Shown here: positions 13,246 through 23,773 of the stretch, piece by piece
How the letters are laid out: the number at the start of each line of letters is the position of its first letter
Position numbering within the stretch: position 1 is the stretch's first letter
NCBI GenBank assembly: GCA_012514975.1
Contig: JAAYZF010000032.1
Span: 1-44,748, forward strand
DNA: 44,748 bases
DNA from: a bacterium
GTDB taxonomy: Bacteria; Auribacterota; UBA3054; JAAYZF01
Reading direction: 5' to 3'
Position numbers and translations under genes: made by a program
The notes under the pieces: generated by a model
Seen by the model: the letters and a program-made list of their open reading frames with translations, nothing else
Databases searched by the model: none
What the model was told of the DNA's origin: nothing

Positions 13246-13306
13246 TCTGATGCCCAACTACAATGTCCGGCGCGCACTTCCGCATGCACGTATCCCTGTA
13301 CGCATG

Positions 13307-13333
13307 GCCGTTACTGAACACTGAGTAACCGGC
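13307..13333 (+). repeat. Left copy of island-flanking direct repeat B with ACTGAAC heptamer
   Basis: GCCGTTACTGAACACTGAGTAACCGGC; shares both outer ends with 15428-15474. Confidence 0.8.
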
Positions 13334-13387
13334 AGCAATGTGCTGCTTGGCTGGAAGCGAGGCTGAATGTACGAATACACGGAATAC

Positions 13388-13417
13388 TTGACTTTTTAGT
13401 ATGTATAATGTATACTA
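13388..13417 (+). promoter_or_regulatory. Promoter with overlapping palindrome (candidate operator)
   Basis: TTGACT (13388-13393), 17-bp spacer, TATACT (13411-13416); inverted repeat TAGTAT (13397-13402)/ATACTA (13412-13417). Confidence 0.7.
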
Positions 13418-13423
13418 TAAAGT

Positions 13424-14038
13424 ATGACAATGCTTGATGGTCAGTCTGGTGTACATGCTTCACTCGCACGGCTTGGCAGACGGCTCCTGTACGAGTACGC
13501 AGACCCGATCGCGCTCGTCGTCTGTGGAGGCAGCGCGCTGAACGTGGTGGGCATCGCGCAGCGCACCACTCGCGATGTCGATGTTCTAGCTTTGGCTGAA
13601 GAGACACGTGGGGGCGTGGTTCTGAGAACAGGCAGTGCGCTGCCCGAAGCGGTTGTCAATGCCGTGGCACGGGTCGGTACTGACCTCGGTTTGCGTCCCG
13701 ACTGGCTCAACATGGGGCCGAAGGATCTCGTAGTGATATACGGCATTCCGCCCGGCATGCTTGAGCGTTTGGTACGGCATCAATACGGGCCGTCGCTGAC
13801 GGTTTTTTTCATAGGCCGGTTTGACCAAGTCCACTTCAAGGTTCTGGCTGCGGCAGATCCGCACGCCCAGCCGCACCACATGGAAGATTTGAACCTGCGC
13901 ATCAAACCATCTGCGGACGAGCTTCGAGCCGCCGTCACGTGGCTGTTGGATCGAAAGACATCACCTCAGTTCCGGGCTCGGCTGAAACATGTTGTCAACG
14001 AGTTGGGCTATGAACAGGCTGCTGCAGACATTCCGTGA
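13424..14038 (+). CDS. Nucleotidyltransferase-fold protein (MNT/AbiEii/DUF6036-like), putative toxin-antitoxin or defence component
   Basis: VVCGGSALNVVGIAQRTTRDVDVLAL matches the GGSA...TxDxD NTase signature. Confidence 0.7.
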   Translation: MTMLDGQSGVHASLARLGRRLLYEYADPIALVVCGGSALNVVGIAQRTTRDVDVLALAEETRGGVVLRTGSALPEAVVNAVARVGTDLGLRPDWLNMGPKDLVVIYGIPPGMLERLVRHQYGPSLTVFFIGRFDQVHFKVLAAADPHAQPHHMEDLNLRIKPSADELRAAVTWLLDRKTSPQFRARLKHVVNELGYEQAAADIP

Positions 14039-15041
14039 AGGGCTCCGCGAGATGCTCCTTGACCTCGTCTGGCGTCAGTGGTGTCAGATGGGAGTCTCCG
14101 GGGTTGTGAACCGCCGCGACAACTGGGTCATCGACCCCGAAGCGCTTCTGGCGTTCACCACGCAGGCGGGTCGTCACGACGCACGCCTGTTCGATGCAAC
14201 GCTTGACTGGCTCGTGCGCAATGGCCAGTGGATCAACGTGCAGCGTCTTGGTTCACTGATCGAGAAGGACAAGACTGGCTGCGGACCAGTGGCAGGTGCG
14301 ATTGCCGCATGGATGATGCGGCACGACAAGAGCGCCAAATGGCACGGACTGGCCGCGCGCATGCTCCCGGCCATGCCTGTCACGCCGGTGGCATTGTTTC
14401 ACTCCCAGTCAGTCGAATCCTTTCGAAGCGGCGCAGAGATCGACCCTGATTTCTCGCGCTATGGCCTGCTGCGCGCACCCGTTGTGTGCCGCGGTGCCAG
14501 TCAGGACGTTGACATGGTTCAGGGTGTGAATGTACTGTTCAGGTTTCGAGCGCTTTTCGGCATCGGCATCCGTGCCGATGTGATCGCGTCCATACTGATC
14601 AGCCCTGGTGGCCATGCCCGCGGCATCGCCGAGGCCCTGGCCTACAACCCGCTGCGCGTGCAGCGAGTGTTGGCGGGCTTGGCGGAAGCGGGCTTCGCGA
14701 CTGTGCACAGGAAGGGCAGGACCAAGAAGTACGAAATGGAGACGGAACGATGGTGGAAGGTGTTGATGGGAAACGAACACACCCCTGCTTCGTGGATCGA
14801 CTGGCGCGCCTTGACGCGCGCGTTGACACGTATCTGGCGTACGGCGTCAGCCATGGACGCTGAACGGGCGGACGACGACATCGTGCAGTCGGAGTTGCGC
14901 GCGGCGCTTCGTGAAGCCCACGACGATCTCCACCGCACCGGGCTTCAGTTTCACCTCCAGGAAGCGCCGGACCAAGGAGCACAGGAATTTGTGCTCTCCT
15001 TGTTGAGCATGTTGAGCATGCCGCTGAAAGGACTTCCTTGA
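14010..15041 (+). CDS. Winged helix-turn-helix domain protein, partner of the NTase gene
   Basis: Overlaps the upstream gene by 29 nt; wHTH-like IRADVIASILISPGGHARGIAEALAYNPLRVQRVLAGLAEAGFATVHRKGRTKKYEM; long ORF. Confidence 0.7.
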   Translation: MNRLLQTFREGLREMLLDLVWRQWCQMGVSGVVNRRDNWVIDPEALLAFTTQAGRHDARLFDATLDWLVRNGQWINVQRLGSLIEKDKTGCGPVAGAIAAWMMRHDKSAKWHGLAARMLPAMPVTPVALFHSQSVESFRSGAEIDPDFSRYGLLRAPVVCRGASQDVDMVQGVNVLFRFRALFGIGIRADVIASILISPGGHARGIAEALAYNPLRVQRVLAGLAEAGFATVHRKGRTKKYEMETERWWKVLMGNEHTPASWIDWRALTRALTRIWRTASAMDAERADDDIVQSELRAALREAHDDLHRTGLQFHLQEAPDQGAQEFVLSLLSMLSMPLKGLP

Positions 15042-15063
15042 GCCGAGCGCCCGGCACGTTCAT

Positions 15064-15104
15064 CAAGCCGGTGTGCGGCCACGACACCGCCTTGACATCC
15101 GGAC
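15064..15104 (+). repeat. Right copy of island-flanking direct repeat A
   Basis: CAAGCCGGTGTGCGGCCACGACACCGCCTTGACATCCGGAC. Confidence 0.75.
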
Positions 15105-15170
15105 GGGAAAACCGGCAATCCCGGCGTTGAGTCCTACCCGGAAAACGGCGGGTCGCGCATCCTGATCGTC

Positions 15171-15401
15171 GTGAAAAGCCGTGATGCGCTTTCACCGCGT
15201 GGCCTGTTGACCTTCACCGACAAAACCGGCGCCGTGTGCGCACGAGTGCCTTCAGGCACCCGGGCGCGTGTGTCCAATGAGTACACAGTGGAACTGCCGC
15301 CCGGGGAATACACATTGCTTGCGCGCGAAGAGACGGGCCCGCTCTCCGAGGATGACAGAAGACACTTGGAAATGGTGGATGCGCCGCCCGCCGGCCCCTG
15401 A
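15171..15401 (+). pseudogene. Probable remnant of a carboxypeptidase regulatory-like domain protein
   Basis: In-frame ...DGKTGNPGVESYPENGGSRILIVVKSRDALSPRGLLTFTDKTGAVCARVPSGTRARVSNEYTVELPPGEYTLLAREETG; lacks a plausible N-terminus. Confidence 0.35.
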
Positions 15402-16757: not shown

Positions 16758-16792
16758 AGACGGACGTGTCACAGCCCACAGGAAGGAAAGGC

Positions 16793-19700
16793 ATGAATTC
16801 GCGCGAGCAGAATGATCTCATCCTGTTTCTTACCGGCCGCGCAGCGTGCGGCGCATTGCCGGCCGAACACATTGTGCCCGTGCTGCGTGAGCTGTGTGCC
16901 GGAGCAGGCGCGCAACGGCTGTCATCGACGCTGATAGAGCCGCTGGCCGGCCTGCAGGCGCCTGTTGCGGCAGCGTTGTTCGGTCAGTTGTGCGGCGAAC
17001 TGGTTGCAGACGCGCAGACGTGCCATGTTGCGTACGTGACCAGCGGGGCGTTGCCGGCTGATTGGCGCGCGCTGCTTGGCGGGTGCGCGCGGGAAATTCC
17101 GCCGGCATGGGCGGGCGTCACGGAGTCGTGTGCTGAACTCGACAAAGGCATTGCCCTTGCTGGTGATCAGTTTCTCGCCGTGGCGCACCGTGCGTGGCTC
17201 GGCGGCGTCACGGCGAAGATTGACGCAGCATTGCGCGGCGCGGCGGTGCTGGTGCACGACAGCCCGTGCGCGTGGCATGGCGATCTTGTGCGCGCCATCA
17301 TCGGCATGCTCGAGCACCGCGCAGCGACGCCGGAGCAGGCCGCGCGCATCGCCGCGTTGCGCGCGCGGTGCGATGAATGGATGAATGCCACGGCCACGGG
17401 CACGCCTGCCACGGCGGACGCCATTGGGGCTCTCGCGGCGCTTTCGGCGCGCAATGATCGCGGCGCGCTTGGCGCTGCACAGGCGGCGTTTGCCTCCACG
17501 ACCGATCGCGCCGCGCGCGCCGCGATACTCGACGTGCTGTGCACGTGGCCGACATGGCGCATGGCATGCGTGCTGCCAGGCCTCGCAACCGAGCCGTGGG
17601 CGCAACTGCGCGCGGCGGTGCTGCTGACGCTGCGGTTCGGTGCGCCACCGGATGCGCGATGGCCCTATTGGCAGCGATGGCTGGAGCTGACGGCCGGCGC
17701 AGTGCGCAGGGAGGATGATCGATGCGCGGCAGTGTGCGCACAGCATCCTGCGCGGGCGGCTGCGTTGTGGCTTGCCGGATTGCCCGAACGCGACACGGCG
17801 CTCGAAGAGGCGCTGGCCGGATGGAGCGGTGCGCTGGAGGCATCGTCGGGCGGGTCGTTCGTCCAGCGCTGGGGAACGGAAATGCCCGCGGAGGTCCGGG
17901 CCGGCATCGCCGGCATCAATGCCGCCGGCATGTCCGTGGCAGGCGAGGACGCGCCGCGGCAGGCGGTGCTGGAGAAGCCGGAGGAGGGCTTCCAGGCGGA
18001 GCCGTCAGTGCTGCGCGCGCGCGTCCACTCATTCCTTGCAGGGAACTGGTTCATGATCGCGGGCGCGCTGATGGTGGTGATCGGCAGCTCGCTTGTTGCG
18101 TACTACACATGGGACAAGCACTGGCTGTGGCGCTACACGATCATGCCGGCGCTGCTGGCGCTGCTCACGGCGGGGATTGCGCGCGTGGGCGGCTGGATGG
18201 AGCGGAAGGATGAGCAGTTCCGCGATACTGCCGCCGTGCTTCGCGCGATAGCGATCGGCCTCGTGCCGGTGAACATGATGGCCGTCGCACTGCTTGCGCG
18301 CGACCCGCAGGTGATGGTGCGCGGCGTGCTTTCGCCCGTGGTTGCAGCCGCGTATCTTGCGGTGGCGGGCGTGGCGTTGGTGCGCTGGTGCCGCGCGGTG
18401 CATCCCCCGCTGGGCGTTCCGCTGGGCATGACATTGCTTGCATTCACGGCGCAGGTTGTGCTGGTGCCGGTGCTGGGCGCGATGGGCGGGTCGTCCATGG
18501 CGGCGGACGAAGTGCTTTCATGCGGTTTCCACGGCGCGTTCGCGGTGGCGGTGTTGTTCGTGCTGCACGCGCTGCGGAGCGGCGATGCGGCGATGCCGGC
18601 GCGGCGCGTCATATGGTTTGCCGCGGCAGCGTGCGCGGTGGTTGTCATCGAGGCGTTCATCTGGTCGTACGGCTATCTGGGCCTTGCGCCGCGCGCGCGG
18701 ACGTATGCGTTGATGATGGCAGCGGCTGGCTGGCTGCTGCTGGTGATCGCGCGGCGCATAGGGCGCCCGGGCGCAGAAGGCGGGCCGATCAACGTGGAGG
18801 CGTTCGCGGGGTACGCGGCGGTGCTGCTGGGCGTGCTCATGGGGGTCACCGGGCAGTGGATGCGCATCGCGGTATGCATCACAGCCGCCGGCGCGCTGAT
18901 GCATGAAGCCATCGCGCGGCGCCACACGGTTCAGTACTGGCTGTCATGTGCGTTTCTGACCGCGGGCGCGGCGTCCGTCGGATTGCTGGACGTGTTCCCG
19001 CGCGAATGGCTGGCAGCGCTGGGCATCGGGTACGCAGCCGTGCTCAGCGGCATCATCATGGCGGGCGGACGGGCGAAACTTTCCGTCCTGGTTTCCGCGG
19101 GCATTGGGACACAGGTGACCGTCCTGTTCATTACGTCCGTCGTGGCGGTGCTTGCGCAGTGGCAGTACCGGACGGAGCCGGTGTGGACGGGCGCGGCGCT
19201 GGTGTGCATCGCGGCGCTGTTCGCCCTGCGCGCCGTGCGCGGGCAGCAGGTGCGCTGGCTGCACACGGCTGCGGTGATGCCCGCGCTGGCGCTGCCGTAC
19301 CTTGGCTGCGTGGACATCATGGGCCGCACGCTGCGCGGGAACACGCTTGTCTTCGGCCTTGCCGTGCTCTCGCTCGCGTGGATGATTGTGGCACGCGTGC
19401 GGCGGACAGGGCTCGTTGCGCGCGCTCGGTCGACGGTGCTGACACTGTACGGTGCATTTGCCATTGCGGCCATGGTGGTGCGCGTGCTCATCGAGCAGTT
19501 CAGGCCCGCGCACGGGCCGTCGTGGCATACGGGAATGGACCTCGGCGGCCCGCTGATGATCACCGCGGCGCTCGCCTGCACGGGATATTTCACGCGGTCG
19601 CTGCTGCCGATGGGCATGGGCGCGGTGATCATGGTCATTCTGTTCCCGGAGATGAAGGCGGATCTGCAGCTCTGGTTTCCGCAACTGGCGTGGGGCAGCG

Positions 19701-22700
19701 GGCTGGGCAGCGCGATCAGTGCGTTCGTCCTCGTGCTCGCCTGCTTCGGCGTGCGGCGCATTCCGCGGCTGCAGCGGCTCGAGGGCGGCGACAAATTCAT
19801 GGATGCAGCGGCGTATCCGCTGCTCCGGAGCGACTACTCGCTGTTCACGATTCCCGTGCTGATTTCGGCGGCGTTCCTGATGGGCAAGGTTGCGACGTGG
19901 AACGTGCTGAGAAACCTGGCGCTGTCGGGCGTGGGCACGCACACATGCGCCGCGCTGCTCATCGGCGGCGCGGGATGGATGTGGATGGCGGTGTATCTCC
20001 GCGCGCGGGGCAGCGCGCCTCTGTTCACGCATCTTGGCTGGCTTTCCCTTGCCGAAGGCGTCATGTTCGGGTACCGCCATGTCGTTGACAAGCCGCACTG
20101 GAGCTGGCCGGTGCTCGCCACGCTCGTTTCGTTCCAGATGCTGTACTGGGCGTATCGCTTTGTCGTTGAGCGCTGGTGCGACTGGGCGCGGCGGGTGCTG
20201 ACAACGCCGCTGCTGCACGTGCTGCGCTACGGCAGCCAGGCGGCGCTCGCCGTGTGCGTCATTGCGCTCTGGTGCGGCGGCATGTTCGAGCGCACATGGC
20301 CGCTGGCGGCGTTCCTCGGGGCACAAATGGCGTGGCAGGCGGTCATGACGGGCGGAGTGTTGTACGGCACGCACCTGTTTGTCCTCGGCATCACGTGCCT
20401 GCTCGCGTGGACCGGCGCAGACAGAAGGCTGATCGTGCACCGGCTGTCGGTTGCGCGCGATTTCACGCCTGCGTTGCTGTATCTGGCTGCGTGGCAGGTG
20501 GTGCATGGAGCGCTTGAATGGAGCGGGAACGTGTACGGCAGGCTGCGCGGGCTGATCCGGCCTGCATTGCTGCTGTCGACGCTGATCGCGGCACTGATGG
20601 CGCTTGTGCTCCCGGCGCTGCTGATGGCTGGCGTGCGCATGCCGGATGCGCTCCAGTTCTCCCTGCTGGGCGGCATACTGCTCGTTGCCGCGCGGGCCAG
20701 CCGATCCATGCCGTTCGTGACGCTCGCGGCTGGAGTGTTGTATCTGCTGGCGAACCGCGCGGGGCTCGTTGCGCAGGCGACCCCGGCGGGAAGGCTTGGC
20801 GTGCTGCTTGCGCCTGACGGCCTGGCGGTGCTTGCCGCGGGAATGGCTGTCGCGCCCGTGGCGGGCATTCTGCCGGCCAGGCGCGCGCGCTGGCTGTTCG
20901 CGCGCGACACGGGCATTCGGGCGCTTGCCGCGCCGGCCGCGGGCTGGCTGTTCCTTCCTGCGGCGCTGTGCGCCATGTTCGCTGTACTCCATTACACCAT
21001 GAATTCCGCGTATTCCGGCGCGCGTGAGTGGCTGTGGGTGCCGTACACATGCGCGGCGGCATGCGGCGTGGTTGCCGCGGTCTGGCAGCCTGGGGTGATG
21101 AGCGTGCTTGCTGCTGTCATTGCCACGGTGGCGAACGTGCACGCGGTGCATCTGCTTGCCGGCGCATTCCTGAGCGCGCATGGTGTTGCGCCGATGCACG
21201 CGGTGCTGCTTGGCTGTGCGGCGACGGTCGCGCAAGCGTACGTTGTGCCGCGCCGTGTCCTGGGTACCGCGCGGGCTGCGGCGGTTGGCGGCGTATGCGG
21301 CGCATGCATTGCCGTGGTCCTGGTGCTCATTGCAGCGGAGTATGCATGGAGGCCGGGCATGGAGCGGCTGACGTTCTGGCGGCTGTGCAGCGCCGGCGCC
21401 GGCGCGCTTGTTGCCGCGGTGTACACCGCGCGCGGCGCAGTGGGTGCGGGAGATGCGCTCCCGCCGGGCAGGCGGGTGGCCCATGCCATCGCGGCAACCA
21501 TCGCGTTGTGGTGCGCTGGGTTCATGATCCCCGTGTGCCGCCTGCCGGAGACGGCGCTGGCTGTTCTGATGGTGCCCGGCGCGTACTTCATGCTGCGCGC
21601 GCGTGCCAGCAGCGGCCGGCAGTTTGTGAACGCGGCAGCCGTCATATGGCTCGCCGTGCTTATCGCCGCCTTTTCGCCTGCTGCGTATCATGTCGCACTC
21701 TTCCCGCGGACGGCGATCGGTGTCATGCACTATCATGGCAGCGCGCCGTATGCAATCGTGGCGGGCATTGCGCTGTTGTGGTTGCACGGCAGGCGCAGGA
21801 TGCCGGGACTGGCCGTTGCGGGCGGCGCGGCGGTGTTCGCGGGCAGTTTTTTTGCTGTAACCGGGTACGACTCGTTCAGCCCGTTCGTGGACGGCATGCG
21901 CGCGGCATGGTGCGCGATCGGGCTGGCACACGCGTGGCTGCTGCTCATGGCGCCGAGATCGCCCGTCATGCGCCTTGTGCAGCGCATGACGGCTGCGGAT
22001 GACGGGCGTGCGGCGATGATGCGTGCATGGTGGCGCGCGTTCCTCGCGTTCGCGATGCATGTTGTGATCATCGCCGGCATCGGTGCATGCGACAGCCGGC
22101 CGCGGATGATCGCTCCGCTGGTCCTCGGGGCCGCATCGGTGATGATACACAGCGGCATCGCGGGCGGCTCACGGCTGGCGCTCGTGCTTGGCGGCATCGA
22201 GCTCTTTGTCGCGCTGCACGCCGATTTCATCGTGGCAAGCTATCTGCCCCGCAGACAGGTCGTCTGGGCGCTGCTTGGCCTCTGGGCGTTGTGGACTGCG
22301 GGGAGCCATGTGCTTGCGCGCCGCGGCAGGGCAGTCCCGGCAGGCATCGTCTCGAGCGCGAGCGCTGCAATCGTTTTCTGCCATATCCTCTACCATCATC
22401 CGTGGTCGACCGCAGGATTGTGGGCCATGGCGGCTGCGTGGTTCCTGGTGGTGCTCACTCCGCGTGCCGCGCGCGCGCCGCGCATGTTTGTGGAACGACT
22501 TGCGTCGTTGGTGGTCCTGCTTGTGCCCGTCTGGCTGGTGTTCTTCAGTCAGGTGCCGGCGCAAGGGCCTTTCGCCAGGCACGCGGACCTGACGTGGGCA
22601 GTCTTGTCAGCGACGGTTGCGCTTGTGGCGGTGGGCATTGCGGCGCGGGCTTTTGCGTTGAGGGCTGCTGCGGCGTACCGGGCGCTGCCGCGCGCATTTC

Positions 22701-23773
22701 CGGTGATGCTCGATCAGTGCCTCGAATGGGCCTGCGGCGCAGGCCCGGCGCTGCACATCGTGACGCTCGCGGCGGGATTCCTCGTGATGGGCATCGTGCA
22801 GGCGGCGCACTACTCGACGGCATTCGCCTTGCGCGAAGCGGTGGCGCTGGGCGCGCTGGCGCTCGGCGGCGCGTGGTGCTGGGTGCGCGCGGGAGCGATG
22901 CGGGAGCGCATGCTGCCGTTCTTCCTTGCACAGCTCTGCCTGCTGTCATTCGCCGTTCTCGTGCGCCGGCATATCATGCTGACAACCAGCCTGTGGAAAC
23001 CCGTGTACGACGTGTGGGCAAGCCTTGCAACATCAGCCTTGCTGACAGGCTTCAAGCACGCGATCGATGCGCGGCCGCGCGCCGTGCGCGTACCGTTCAT
23101 CACCACCGTGCTGATCCTGCCGGTGCTGACAATGGTCTGGGTGCTCGTCCATCATATGGGCAGCACTGCCGTGCTCATCGTTGCCGGCCTGCACACAGTG
23201 TTGTTCGCCTATCTCGGCAAGGACGATCGCGAATCGCCGTACCAGGCGCTCGGCGTGTGCTCGTTCATCACATTCCTGCTGGTCCTGTTCTGGGCAAAGC
23301 TGTCACTGCGCGTCGCATATGCGTATGTGATCCCGGCGGGCACCGGGCTGCTGGTGCTGGTACAACTGTTCCGCGACCGGCTCGCGCCGGCGGTGCGCGG
23401 CATCATCCGTTTCATCGCCGTCACCGCCATGCTGGGAAGCGCGTGTTACTATGCGCTGATTGGCGGCCAGTATCCCGTGGCGCATCTTGCGATCTTCGGG
23501 CTGCTCTGCCTCGGCGTGATGGGGCTTGGCGCCGTGCTGCGCATCCGATTGCACCTGGCACTGGGTTTTGCCGGGCTGGTCGTGGACCTGAGCGCCGTGG
23601 TCTACAAAGTCATCATGACCATGCAGCGCGGCGGGCAGATGATCATGATCGGCGGCATGGTGCTGCTGCTGGGCGTGGTGCTCGTTGCGGGCGCTGTCTA
23701 CTCGAAAACACACCGCGGCACCATCGCGGAGACGCTGGCCGCATGGCGCTCCCGGTTGCGCGAATGGGAGTGA
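16793..23773 (+). CDS. Giant polytopic membrane protein (about 2,326 aa), DUF2339-like, function unknown
   Basis: Soluble N-terminal region of about 400 aa followed by dozens of hydrophobic helices to the C-terminus; FLAGNWFMIAGALMVVIGSSLVAYYTWDKHWLWRYTIMPALLALLTAGIARVGGWMERK resembles DUF2339/DUF2157-type starts. Confidence 0.85.
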   Translation: MNSREQNDLILFLTGRAACGALPAEHIVPVLRELCAGAGAQRLSSTLIEPLAGLQAPVAAALFGQLCGELVADAQTCHVAYVTSGALPADWRALLGGCAREIPPAWAGVTESCAELDKGIALAGDQFLAVAHRAWLGGVTAKIDAALRGAAVLVHDSPCAWHGDLVRAIIGMLEHRAATPEQAARIAALRARCDEWMNATATGTPATADAIGALAALSARNDRGALGAAQAAFASTTDRAARAAILDVLCTWPTWRMACVLPGLATEPWAQLRAAVLLTLRFGAPPDARWPYWQRWLELTAGAVRREDDRCAAVCAQHPARAAALWLAGLPERDTALEEALAGWSGALEASSGGSFVQRWGTEMPAEVRAGIAGINAAGMSVAGEDAPRQAVLEKPEEGFQAEPSVLRARVHSFLAGNWFMIAGALMVVIGSSLVAYYTWDKHWLWRYTIMPALLALLTAGIARVGGWMERKDEQFRDTAAVLRAIAIGLVPVNMMAVALLARDPQVMVRGVLSPVVAAAYLAVAGVALVRWCRAVHPPLGVPLGMTLLAFTAQVVLVPVLGAMGGSSMAADEVLSCGFHGAFAVAVLFVLHALRSGDAAMPARRVIWFAAAACAVVVIEAFIWSYGYLGLAPRARTYALMMAAAGWLLLVIARRIGRPGAEGGPINVEAFAGYAAVLLGVLMGVTGQWMRIAVCITAAGALMHEAIARRHTVQYWLSCAFLTAGAASVGLLDVFPREWLAALGIGYAAVLSGIIMAGGRAKLSVLVSAGIGTQVTVLFITSVVAVLAQWQYRTEPVWTGAALVCIAALFALRAVRGQQVRWLHTAAVMPALALPYLGCVDIMGRTLRGNTLVFGLAVLSLAWMIVARVRRTGLVARARSTVLTLYGAFAIAAMVVRVLIEQFRPAHGPSWHTGMDLGGPLMITAALACTGYFTRSLLPMGMGAVIMVILFPEMKADLQLWFPQLAWGSGLGSAISAFVLVLACFGVRRIPRLQRLEGGDKFMDAAAYPLLRSDYSLFTIPVLISAAFLMGKVATWNVLRNLALSGVGTHTCAALLIGGAGWMWMAVYLRARGSAPLFTHLGWLSLAEGVMFGYRHVVDKPHWSWPVLATLVSFQMLYWAYRFVVERWCDWARRVLTTPLLHVLRYGSQAALAVCVIALWCGGMFERTWPLAAFLGAQMAWQAVMTGGVLYGTHLFVLGITCLLAWTGADRRLIVHRLSVARDFTPALLYLAAWQVVHGALEWSGNVYGRLRGLIRPALLLSTLIAALMALVLPALLMAGVRMPDALQFSLLGGILLVAARASRSMPFVTLAAGVLYLLANRAGLVAQATPAGRLGVLLAPDGLAVLAAGMAVAPVAGILPARRARWLFARDTGIRALAAPAAGWLFLPAALCAMFAVLHYTMNSAYSGAREWLWVPYTCAAACGVVAAVWQPGVMSVLAAVIATVANVHAVHLLAGAFLSAHGVAPMHAVLLGCAATVAQAYVVPRRVLGTARAAAVGGVCGACIAVVLVLIAAEYAWRPGMERLTFWRLCSAGAGALVAAVYTARGAVGAGDALPPGRRVAHAIAATIALWCAGFMIPVCRLPETALAVLMVPGAYFMLRARASSGRQFVNAAAVIWLAVLIAAFSPAAYHVALFPRTAIGVMHYHGSAPYAIVAGIALLWLHGRRRMPGLAVAGGAAVFAGSFFAVTGYDSFSPFVDGMRAAWCAIGLAHAWLLLMAPRSPVMRLVQRMTAADDGRAAMMRAWWRAFLAFAMHVVIIAGIGACDSRPRMIAPLVLGAASVMIHSGIAGGSRLALVLGGIELFVALHADFIVASYLPRRQVVWALLGLWALWTAGSHVLARRGRAVPAGIVSSASAAIVFCHILYHHPWSTAGLWAMAAAWFLVVLTPRAARAPRMFVERLASLVVLLVPVWLVFFSQVPAQGPFARHADLTWAVLSATVALVAVGIAARAFALRAAAAYRALPRAFPVMLDQCLEWACGAGPALHIVTLAAGFLVMGIVQAAHYSTAFALREAVALGALALGGAWCWVRAGAMRERMLPFFLAQLCLLSFAVLVRRHIMLTTSLWKPVYDVWASLATSALLTGFKHAIDARPRAVRVPFITTVLILPVLTMVWVLVHHMGSTAVLIVAGLHTVLFAYLGKDDRESPYQALGVCSFITFLLVLFWAKLSLRVAYAYVIPAGTGLLVLVQLFRDRLAPAVRGIIRFIAVTAMLGSACYYALIGGQYPVAHLAIFGLLCLGVMGLGAVLRIRLHLALGFAGLVVDLSAVVYKVIMTMQRGGQMIMIGGMVLLLGVVLVAGAVYSKTHRGTIAETLAAWRSRLREWE

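What the first reader, a model, noticed from the sequence alone, without database searches (positions are those of the whole stretch)
13424..15041. Two-gene nucleotidyltransferase + winged-helix module: candidate toxin-antitoxin/defence system
Gene 1 (about 204 aa) has a GGSALNVVG...RTTRDVDVLAL NTase signature, as in MNT/AbiEii/DUF6036 proteins. Gene 2 (about 343 aa) overlaps it by 29 nt and carries a central wHTH (GHARGIAEALAYNPLRVQRVLAGLAEAGFATVHRKGRTKKYEM) flanked by unassigned N- and C-terminal regions. An overlapping NTase + DNA-binding pair in an accessory island resembles AbiE-type logic, but gene 2 is much longer than typical antitoxins. Function is inference.
Basis: partly seen in the sequence, partly recalled or inferred. 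Interest (0 to 1): 0.75.

Follow-up and report, generated by a model that had tools for sequence, protein, structure and literature searches.

The report
Nucleotidyltransferase toxin with unusual antitoxin
Two overlapping genes, a nucleotide-transferring enzyme with an intact active site and a large DNA-binding partner unlike any antitoxin family tested, travel together across many bacterial phyla and are often inserted inside virus-cutting restriction operons, so they look like a new variety of self-poisoning defence switch.

Summary
Gene 1 (13424-14038) is a nucleotidyltransferase (NTase); gene 2 (14010-15041) overlaps it by 29 nt and has a central winged helix. An NTase-based search found 261 relatives; of the best 80, 79 have a gene-2 homologue directly downstream, in about 20 named phyla. 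The active site is intact: R47, T49, K139 and D155 are invariant in 79 sequences, and R-x-T-x-D-x-D matches the MenT toxin loop. MenT1 and MenT3 are the nearest solved toxins (weak scores).

Gene 2 matches no AbiEi family; only its winged helix resembles anything known, and the gene order is the reverse of AbiE. In 20 of 58 loci with both flanks, the pair lies exactly between hsdM and hsdS of a type I restriction operon. Stand-alone copies, the window's included, often carry an inverted repeat over the promoter.

Best reading: a toxin-antitoxin module of MenT/AbiEii logic with an unrelated antitoxin, repeatedly found inside type I restriction operons. Toxicity, neutralisation and phage defence are inferred, not shown. 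The claimed 'accessory island' is not there: the window copy sits among ordinary genes.

The parts
13388..13416 (+). sigma-70-like promoter TTGACT-17 nt-TATACT; the only one found in 13250-15300; its second hexamer ends 7 nt before the ATG, so the mRNA may be leaderless
   Evidence: 1 found, 0.6 expected from shuffles; leaderless mRNA is inference
13391..13423 (.). inverted repeat ACTTTTTAGTAT-N9-ATACTATAAAGT (11 of 12 pairs) covering the promoter and abutting the start codon; candidate operator for autorepression by gene 2
   Evidence: (p<=0.01 against dinucleotide shuffles)
13424..14038 (+). gene 1: nucleotidyltransferase, 204 aa, divergent DUF6036/AbiEii superfamily; active-site residues R47, T49, D51, D53, K139, H152, D155; candidate toxin
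14010..15041 (+). gene 2: 343 aa; N-terminal helical domain (about 1-120), linker, wHTH (about 187-242), C-terminal helical domain (about 245-340); candidate antitoxin and autorepressor
14010..14038 (+). 29-nt overlap of the two reading frames (translational coupling inferred); gene 2 is in the same relative frame in the relatives

Best explanation
The pair is a two-gene toxin-antitoxin-type module. Gene 1 is an active nucleotidyltransferase toxin that, by analogy with MenT, would add nucleotides to a host RNA (most likely tRNA 3' ends) and stop growth. Gene 2 is its antitoxin: its helical domains would hold the NTase inactive, possibly by pushing T49 towards the bound nucleotide so that it is auto-phosphorylated as proposed for MenT1 and MenT3, and its central winged helix would bind the inverted repeat over the promoter and repress the operon. 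The overlapping frames couple translation. In many lineages the same pair sits inside a type I restriction-modification operon, where it probably serves as a second defence line or guard of that system. Shown here: gene anatomy, conserved pairing, intact active site, promoter-like site with inverted repeat, hsdM-pair-hsdS arrangement. Inferred: toxicity, neutralisation, RNA target, autorepression, phage defence.
For: Pairing: 79 of the best 80 NTase relatives have gene 2 directly downstream in the same relative frame; NTase and gene-2 distances correlate (Mantel r 0.69, n=80; 0.92 in 19 embedded loci). Catalysis: R47, T49, K139, D155 invariant in 79 sequences; D51, D53 and H152 kept in 78. R-x-T-x-D-x-D fits MenT1, where T39 of the R37-F38-T39 active-site loop is the phosphoacceptor (PMC11375011). 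Nearest solved toxins by sequence and by fold are MenT1 and MenT3. Regulation: 22 of 56 stand-alone copies have a significant inverted repeat just upstream (13 at p<=0.01) against 3 of 21 embedded ones, most of which start within a few nt of the hsdM stop. Defence context: HsdM directly upstream in 23 of 67 and HsdS directly downstream in 22 of 67 loci with enough flank, both in 20 of 58, with three HsdM groups 35-47% identical to one another. Patchy distribution (4 of 44 genomes in the phylum, 3 of 82 in another) and double copies (L023; G127).
Against: No toxicity, neutralisation or protection has been shown. Similarity to MenT is remote (sequence E=0.026; Foldseek E=0.017, TM about 0.33). 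The first acidic residue of AbiEii motif IV is a histidine here, so chemistry or substrate may differ. Gene 2 is large and predicted well folded (pLDDT 95), unlike many labile antitoxins. Neighbours of stand-alone copies are ordinary genes, not defence islands. The pair was not found in plasmid records, nor the NTase in phage records.
Confidence: 0.66

Rival explanations
1. The NTase is the antitoxin and gene 2 the toxin, as in HEPN-MNT, where the NTase MntA modifies the RNase HepT to silence it.
For: A helical partner beside an NTase superficially recalls MNT/HEPN pairs; gene 2 has nearly invariant polar residues (Q23, D42, E44, R59, R79).
Against: No conserved HEPN Rx4-6H motif among gene-2 conserved positions; the NTase has the R-x-T-x-D-x-D loop and distal lysine of the MenT/DUF1814 type; gene 2 carries a DNA-binding domain and no HEPN model is among its listed Pfam matches.
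Confidence: 0.1
2. The pair is not a toxin-antitoxin system but a regulatory module of type I restriction: gene 2 controls hsd expression or DNA targeting and the NTase modifies an Hsd subunit or makes a nucleotide signal.
For: In 20 of 58 loci the pair sits in line within hsdM-hsdS, mostly with gaps of a few nt.
Against: About two thirds of loci lack hsd genes next to the pair, and the window's genome has no detectable HsdM (genome 76% complete). L067 keeps an intact pair beside a broken hsdM.
Confidence: 0.17
3. The pair is a housekeeping RNA- or metabolite-modifying enzyme with its own repressor, unrelated to defence or growth control.
For: Stand-alone copies lie among ordinary genes.
Against: Patchy occurrence, spread across phyla, double copies and repeated placement in restriction operons are atypical of housekeeping genes.
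Confidence: 0.07

Closest known systems
MenAT systems of Mycobacterium tuberculosis (MenT1 Rv0078A, MenT3/TglT Rv1045)
   Same: NTase with R-x-[T/S]-x-D-x-D loop, distal lysine and aspartate; nearest solved toxins; MenT toxins already pair with several unrelated antitoxins (PMC11375011).
   Different: Only remote similarity; motif IV is H-x-x-D instead of D-x-x-D; the partner matches none of the MenA-type families tested here (AbiEi families, COG4861); toxin gene comes first.
AbiE (AbiEi/AbiEii, type IV toxin-antitoxin)
   Same: NTase plus wHTH protein, bicistronic, inverted repeats at the promoter, defence link (PMC3985639).
   Different: In AbiE the regulator gene precedes the NTase gene; AbiEi has an N-terminal wHTH, gene 2 a central wHTH between two helical domains, and gene 2 matches no AbiEi Pfam family.
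COG4861-COG4849 pairs (AbiEi_2 plus NTase; includes Rv0837c-Rv0836c, MenAT2)
   Same: Regulator of about 350 aa with a wHTH next to an NTase.
   Different: Profile comparison aligns only 38 wHTH columns (probability 5%); the NTases align only over motifs I-II; opposite gene order.
Toxins embedded in type I R-M operons: PrrC in hsdMSR (PMC3710099); DarTG2 between hsdS and hsdR (PMC12255303)
   Same: Self-harming module inside a restriction operon.
   Different: Different toxin chemistry; here the insertion point is between hsdM and hsdS, and stand-alone copies are also common.

Membership tests
DUF6036 nucleotidyltransferase (PF19502) | Pfam profile match above the gathering score | tested here: inconclusive
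   Window protein 21.3 bits against cut-off 23.6; 75 of 79 relatives match at E<=0.01, best 3.1e-10; other DUF6036 genes fetched from related genomes have no gene 2 beside them
AbiEii/MenT (DUF1814) toxin | Motifs I-II: G-[G/S] then R-x-[T/S]-x-D-x-D | tested here: met
   G36, R47, T49 invariant, D51 and D53 in 78 of 79
AbiEii/MenT (DUF1814) toxin | Motif III lysine in hydrophobic context | tested here: met
   K139 invariant in HFK[L]xA; aligned with MenT1 MKLLA
AbiEii/MenT (DUF1814) toxin | Motif IV +DxxD | tested here: not met
   H152-x-x-D155: histidine in 78 of 79 in place of the first Asp; second Asp invariant
AbiEii/MenT (DUF1814) toxin | Toxicity through nucleotide transfer | not testable with these tools
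   needs expression and biochemistry
AbiE type IV toxin-antitoxin system | AbiEi-family antitoxin | tested here: not met
   No AbiEi family among matches of the window protein at E<=1 or among the 25 most frequent families of 79 members at E<=0.5; no AbiEi structure among the 50 best folds
AbiE type IV toxin-antitoxin system | Antitoxin gene upstream of the NTase gene | tested here: not met
   NTase first in every pair examined
AbiE type IV toxin-antitoxin system | Inverted repeats at the operon promoter | tested here: met
   Window 13391-13423; 22 of 56 stand-alone loci
COG4861 (AbiEi_2) antitoxin | Homology over the whole protein | tested here: not met
   hhalign: 38 wHTH columns only, probability 5%
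HEPN-MNT | HEPN partner with Rx4-6H | tested here: not met
   No such conserved residues in gene 2, no HEPN among listed Pfam matches
Type I R-M-embedded module (PrrC/DarTG-like placement) | Located within an hsdMSR operon | tested here: inconclusive
   Met in relatives: hsdM and hsdS on both sides in 20 of 58 loci. Not met for the window copy

The most novel reading that the evidence does not exclude
A new, widespread toxin-antitoxin family with an undescribed antitoxin architecture, in which an RNA- or protein-modifying NTase is held by gene 2 and, when placed inside hsdM-hsdS, is released when a phage disables the type I restriction enzyme (a PrrC-like guard with NTase chemistry).
Probability: 0.3. 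Interest if true: 0.78.

Novelty: new variant of a known kind. Interest (0 to 1): 0.62.

Why it matters
NTase toxins are kept in check by several unrelated antitoxins, and how they do so is an open question. This family adds a further, large antitoxin candidate whose two helical domains match nothing solved, plus a natural series of stand-alone and restriction-embedded copies. Two questions become testable: whether antitoxin-driven auto-phosphorylation of the T/S loop is general, and whether toxin modules inside type I restriction operons act as guards against phage anti-restriction.

Tried and rejected
A single-protein scan of genome contigs with gene 2 gave no relatives; the NTase alignment did. 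L006 (Fic-like protein) was a false relative of gene 2. PADLOC PDC-M05A matched only the wHTH, and the literature describes PDC-M05 as NTase plus HEPN (PMC12988326), so it is not this system. The Pfam HrpB1_HrpK match (E=0.03) was dismissed as chance. I first guessed that the conserved flanking genes were a two-component system and an efflux pump; Pfam showed RadC, HsdM, HsdS and HsdR. Viral-contig scans failed on the machine three times, so presence in IMG/VR is untested. No Rfam match. No paper in the library mentions DUF6036; searches for this pair in hsd operons found only the PrrC and DarTG precedents. The preprint on defences embedded in immune systems (Payne et al., cited) is not in the library and could not be checked.

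Full report
OBSERVATION. The window is contig 320 of a 4.1 Mb, 484-contig genome, 76% complete, and gene 2 occurs once in it. Third-position GC is 0.62 (gene 1) and 0.74 (gene 2) against 0.81-0.84 in neighbours, which fits acquisition of the pair alone. The flanking genes are a Pcm-type methyltransferase and a GPAT-like acyltransferase, so there is no sign of an accessory island.

CONSERVED PAIRING. Gene 2 finds four true relatives in 97 genomes (31-33% identity for three, 21% for the fourth), each with an NTase gene directly upstream. An alignment of the five NTases was used to scan genome contigs: 261 relatives, best 80 kept. A gene-2 homologue lies directly downstream in 79 of 80; the exception is L026, where the NTase stands alone. 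The overlap is typically 20, 26 or 32 nt and always leaves gene 2 in the same relative frame. Caveat: the search motifs came from paired NTases, and the other 181 relatives were not inspected. The 80 loci cover about 20 named phyla, mostly uncultured. In the NTase tree the window falls with Kiritimatiellota and Lentisphaerota copies (57-61% identity), without strong branch support. No match was found in plasmid records or, for the NTase, in phage records.

GENE 1. In 79 sequences G36, R47, T49, K139 and D155 are invariant; D51, D53 and H152 are kept in 78. The Pfam match is DUF6036, below cut-off for the window protein but found in 75 of 79 members at E<=0.01, best 3.1e-10; AbiEii in 40. The AlphaFold model is confident (pLDDT 96). 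Its best PDB folds are MenT1, a fungal NTase-like protein and MenT3, with weak scores (E 0.017-0.1); the profile also picks MenT1 first by sequence (E=0.026). [quoted passage not shown] T49 here sits at the same place. AbiEii motif IV is +DxxD (PMC3985639); here it is HxxD, a family-specific deviation.

GENE 2. The model (pLDDT 95) shows a helical N-terminal domain, a central wHTH (about 187-242) and a helical C-terminal domain. Only the wHTH matches PDB or viral folds or Pfam families recurrently. The N-terminal domain holds most of the invariant or nearly invariant positions (W21, Q23, W24, G28, D42, E44, R59, W67, R79), as expected of a partner-binding surface (inference). A direct profile comparison with AbiEi_2/COG4861 proteins fetched from relatives aligns only 38 wHTH columns at 5% probability.

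RESTRICTION CONTEXT. Neighbour lengths suggested a conserved operon; Pfam identified RadC, HsdM, HsdS and HsdR. HsdM lies directly upstream in 23 of 67 loci with enough flank, HsdS directly downstream in 22 of 67, both in 20 of 58. Gaps are often 0-3 nt. Embedded copies occur in at least nine named phyla plus an archaeal bin (L027, with two genes before hsdS). Their HsdMs form three groups, 35-47% identical between groups, and the label needs seven changes on the NTase tree, at least three forced by strongly supported branches. N6-methylase genes number only a few per genome, so this adjacency is far beyond chance. Stand-alone copies have no recurrent neighbours. L067 has an intact pair beside a broken hsdM.

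REGULATION. In stand-alone copies an inverted repeat often covers the region just before the start codon: 22 of 56 at p<=0.05 against dinucleotide shuffles, 13 at p<=0.01. Among 21 embedded copies (including L025, which groups with them in the tree but has no detected hsd genes) it is 3, all with an intergenic gap of at least 38 nt. In the window, ACTTTTTAGTAT-N9-ATACTATAAAGT (13391-13423) overlaps the only promoter-like site, 13388-13416, and ends at the base before the ATG. That resembles AbiEi-type autorepression; binding is not shown.

MECHANISM. The most economical account is a MenT/AbiEii-logic toxin-antitoxin pair whose antitoxin belongs to a family not covered by the libraries searched. 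The restriction link resembles PrrC, kept silent by a type Ic R-M complex and released when phage T4 inhibits it (PMC3710099), and DarTG2 inside an E. coli type I locus (PMC12255303). Whether this pair guards restriction, or only shares its operon, cannot be decided from sequence.

COMPARISON AND NOVELTY. The known pairs COG5340-COG2253 and COG4861-COG4849 have the regulator first (PMC3985639); here the NTase is first. The antitoxin is unrelated to the tested AbiEi families outside the wHTH, while MenT toxins are already known to pair with several unrelated antitoxins. So: a new variant of a known kind. Preprints and most subscription papers could not be consulted, so prior description is possible.

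Noticed in passing
L029, L035, L039, L040, L044, L047, L059, L062: A RadC-like gene precedes hsdM in these type I operons (RadC-hsdM-NTase-wHTH-hsdS-hsdR where complete).
   Followed up: no
L023: 7944-9657 (+) and 9903-11319 (-): Two different NTase plus gene-2 pairs lie convergent and adjacent in one Verrucomicrobia contig.
   Followed up: no
L094, L095 (G127 contig 242): Two near-identical pairs in tandem, on a long branch of the NTase tree; a divergent subfamily.
   Followed up: no
L027: 9670-13292: In an archaeal bin two further genes (620 and 587 aa) sit between the pair and hsdS.
   Followed up: no
L026: 4637-5251: An NTase of this family with its motifs kept but without any gene 2 downstream.
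   Followed up: partly
window 16766-23773 (+): A 2335-aa, very hydrophobic, many-transmembrane open reading frame next to the GPAT-like gene.
   Followed up: no
L096-L105: Genuine AbiEi_2/COG4861-type regulator genes, most with an NTase gene downstream, occur in related genomes; used as a contrast set.
   Followed up: partly
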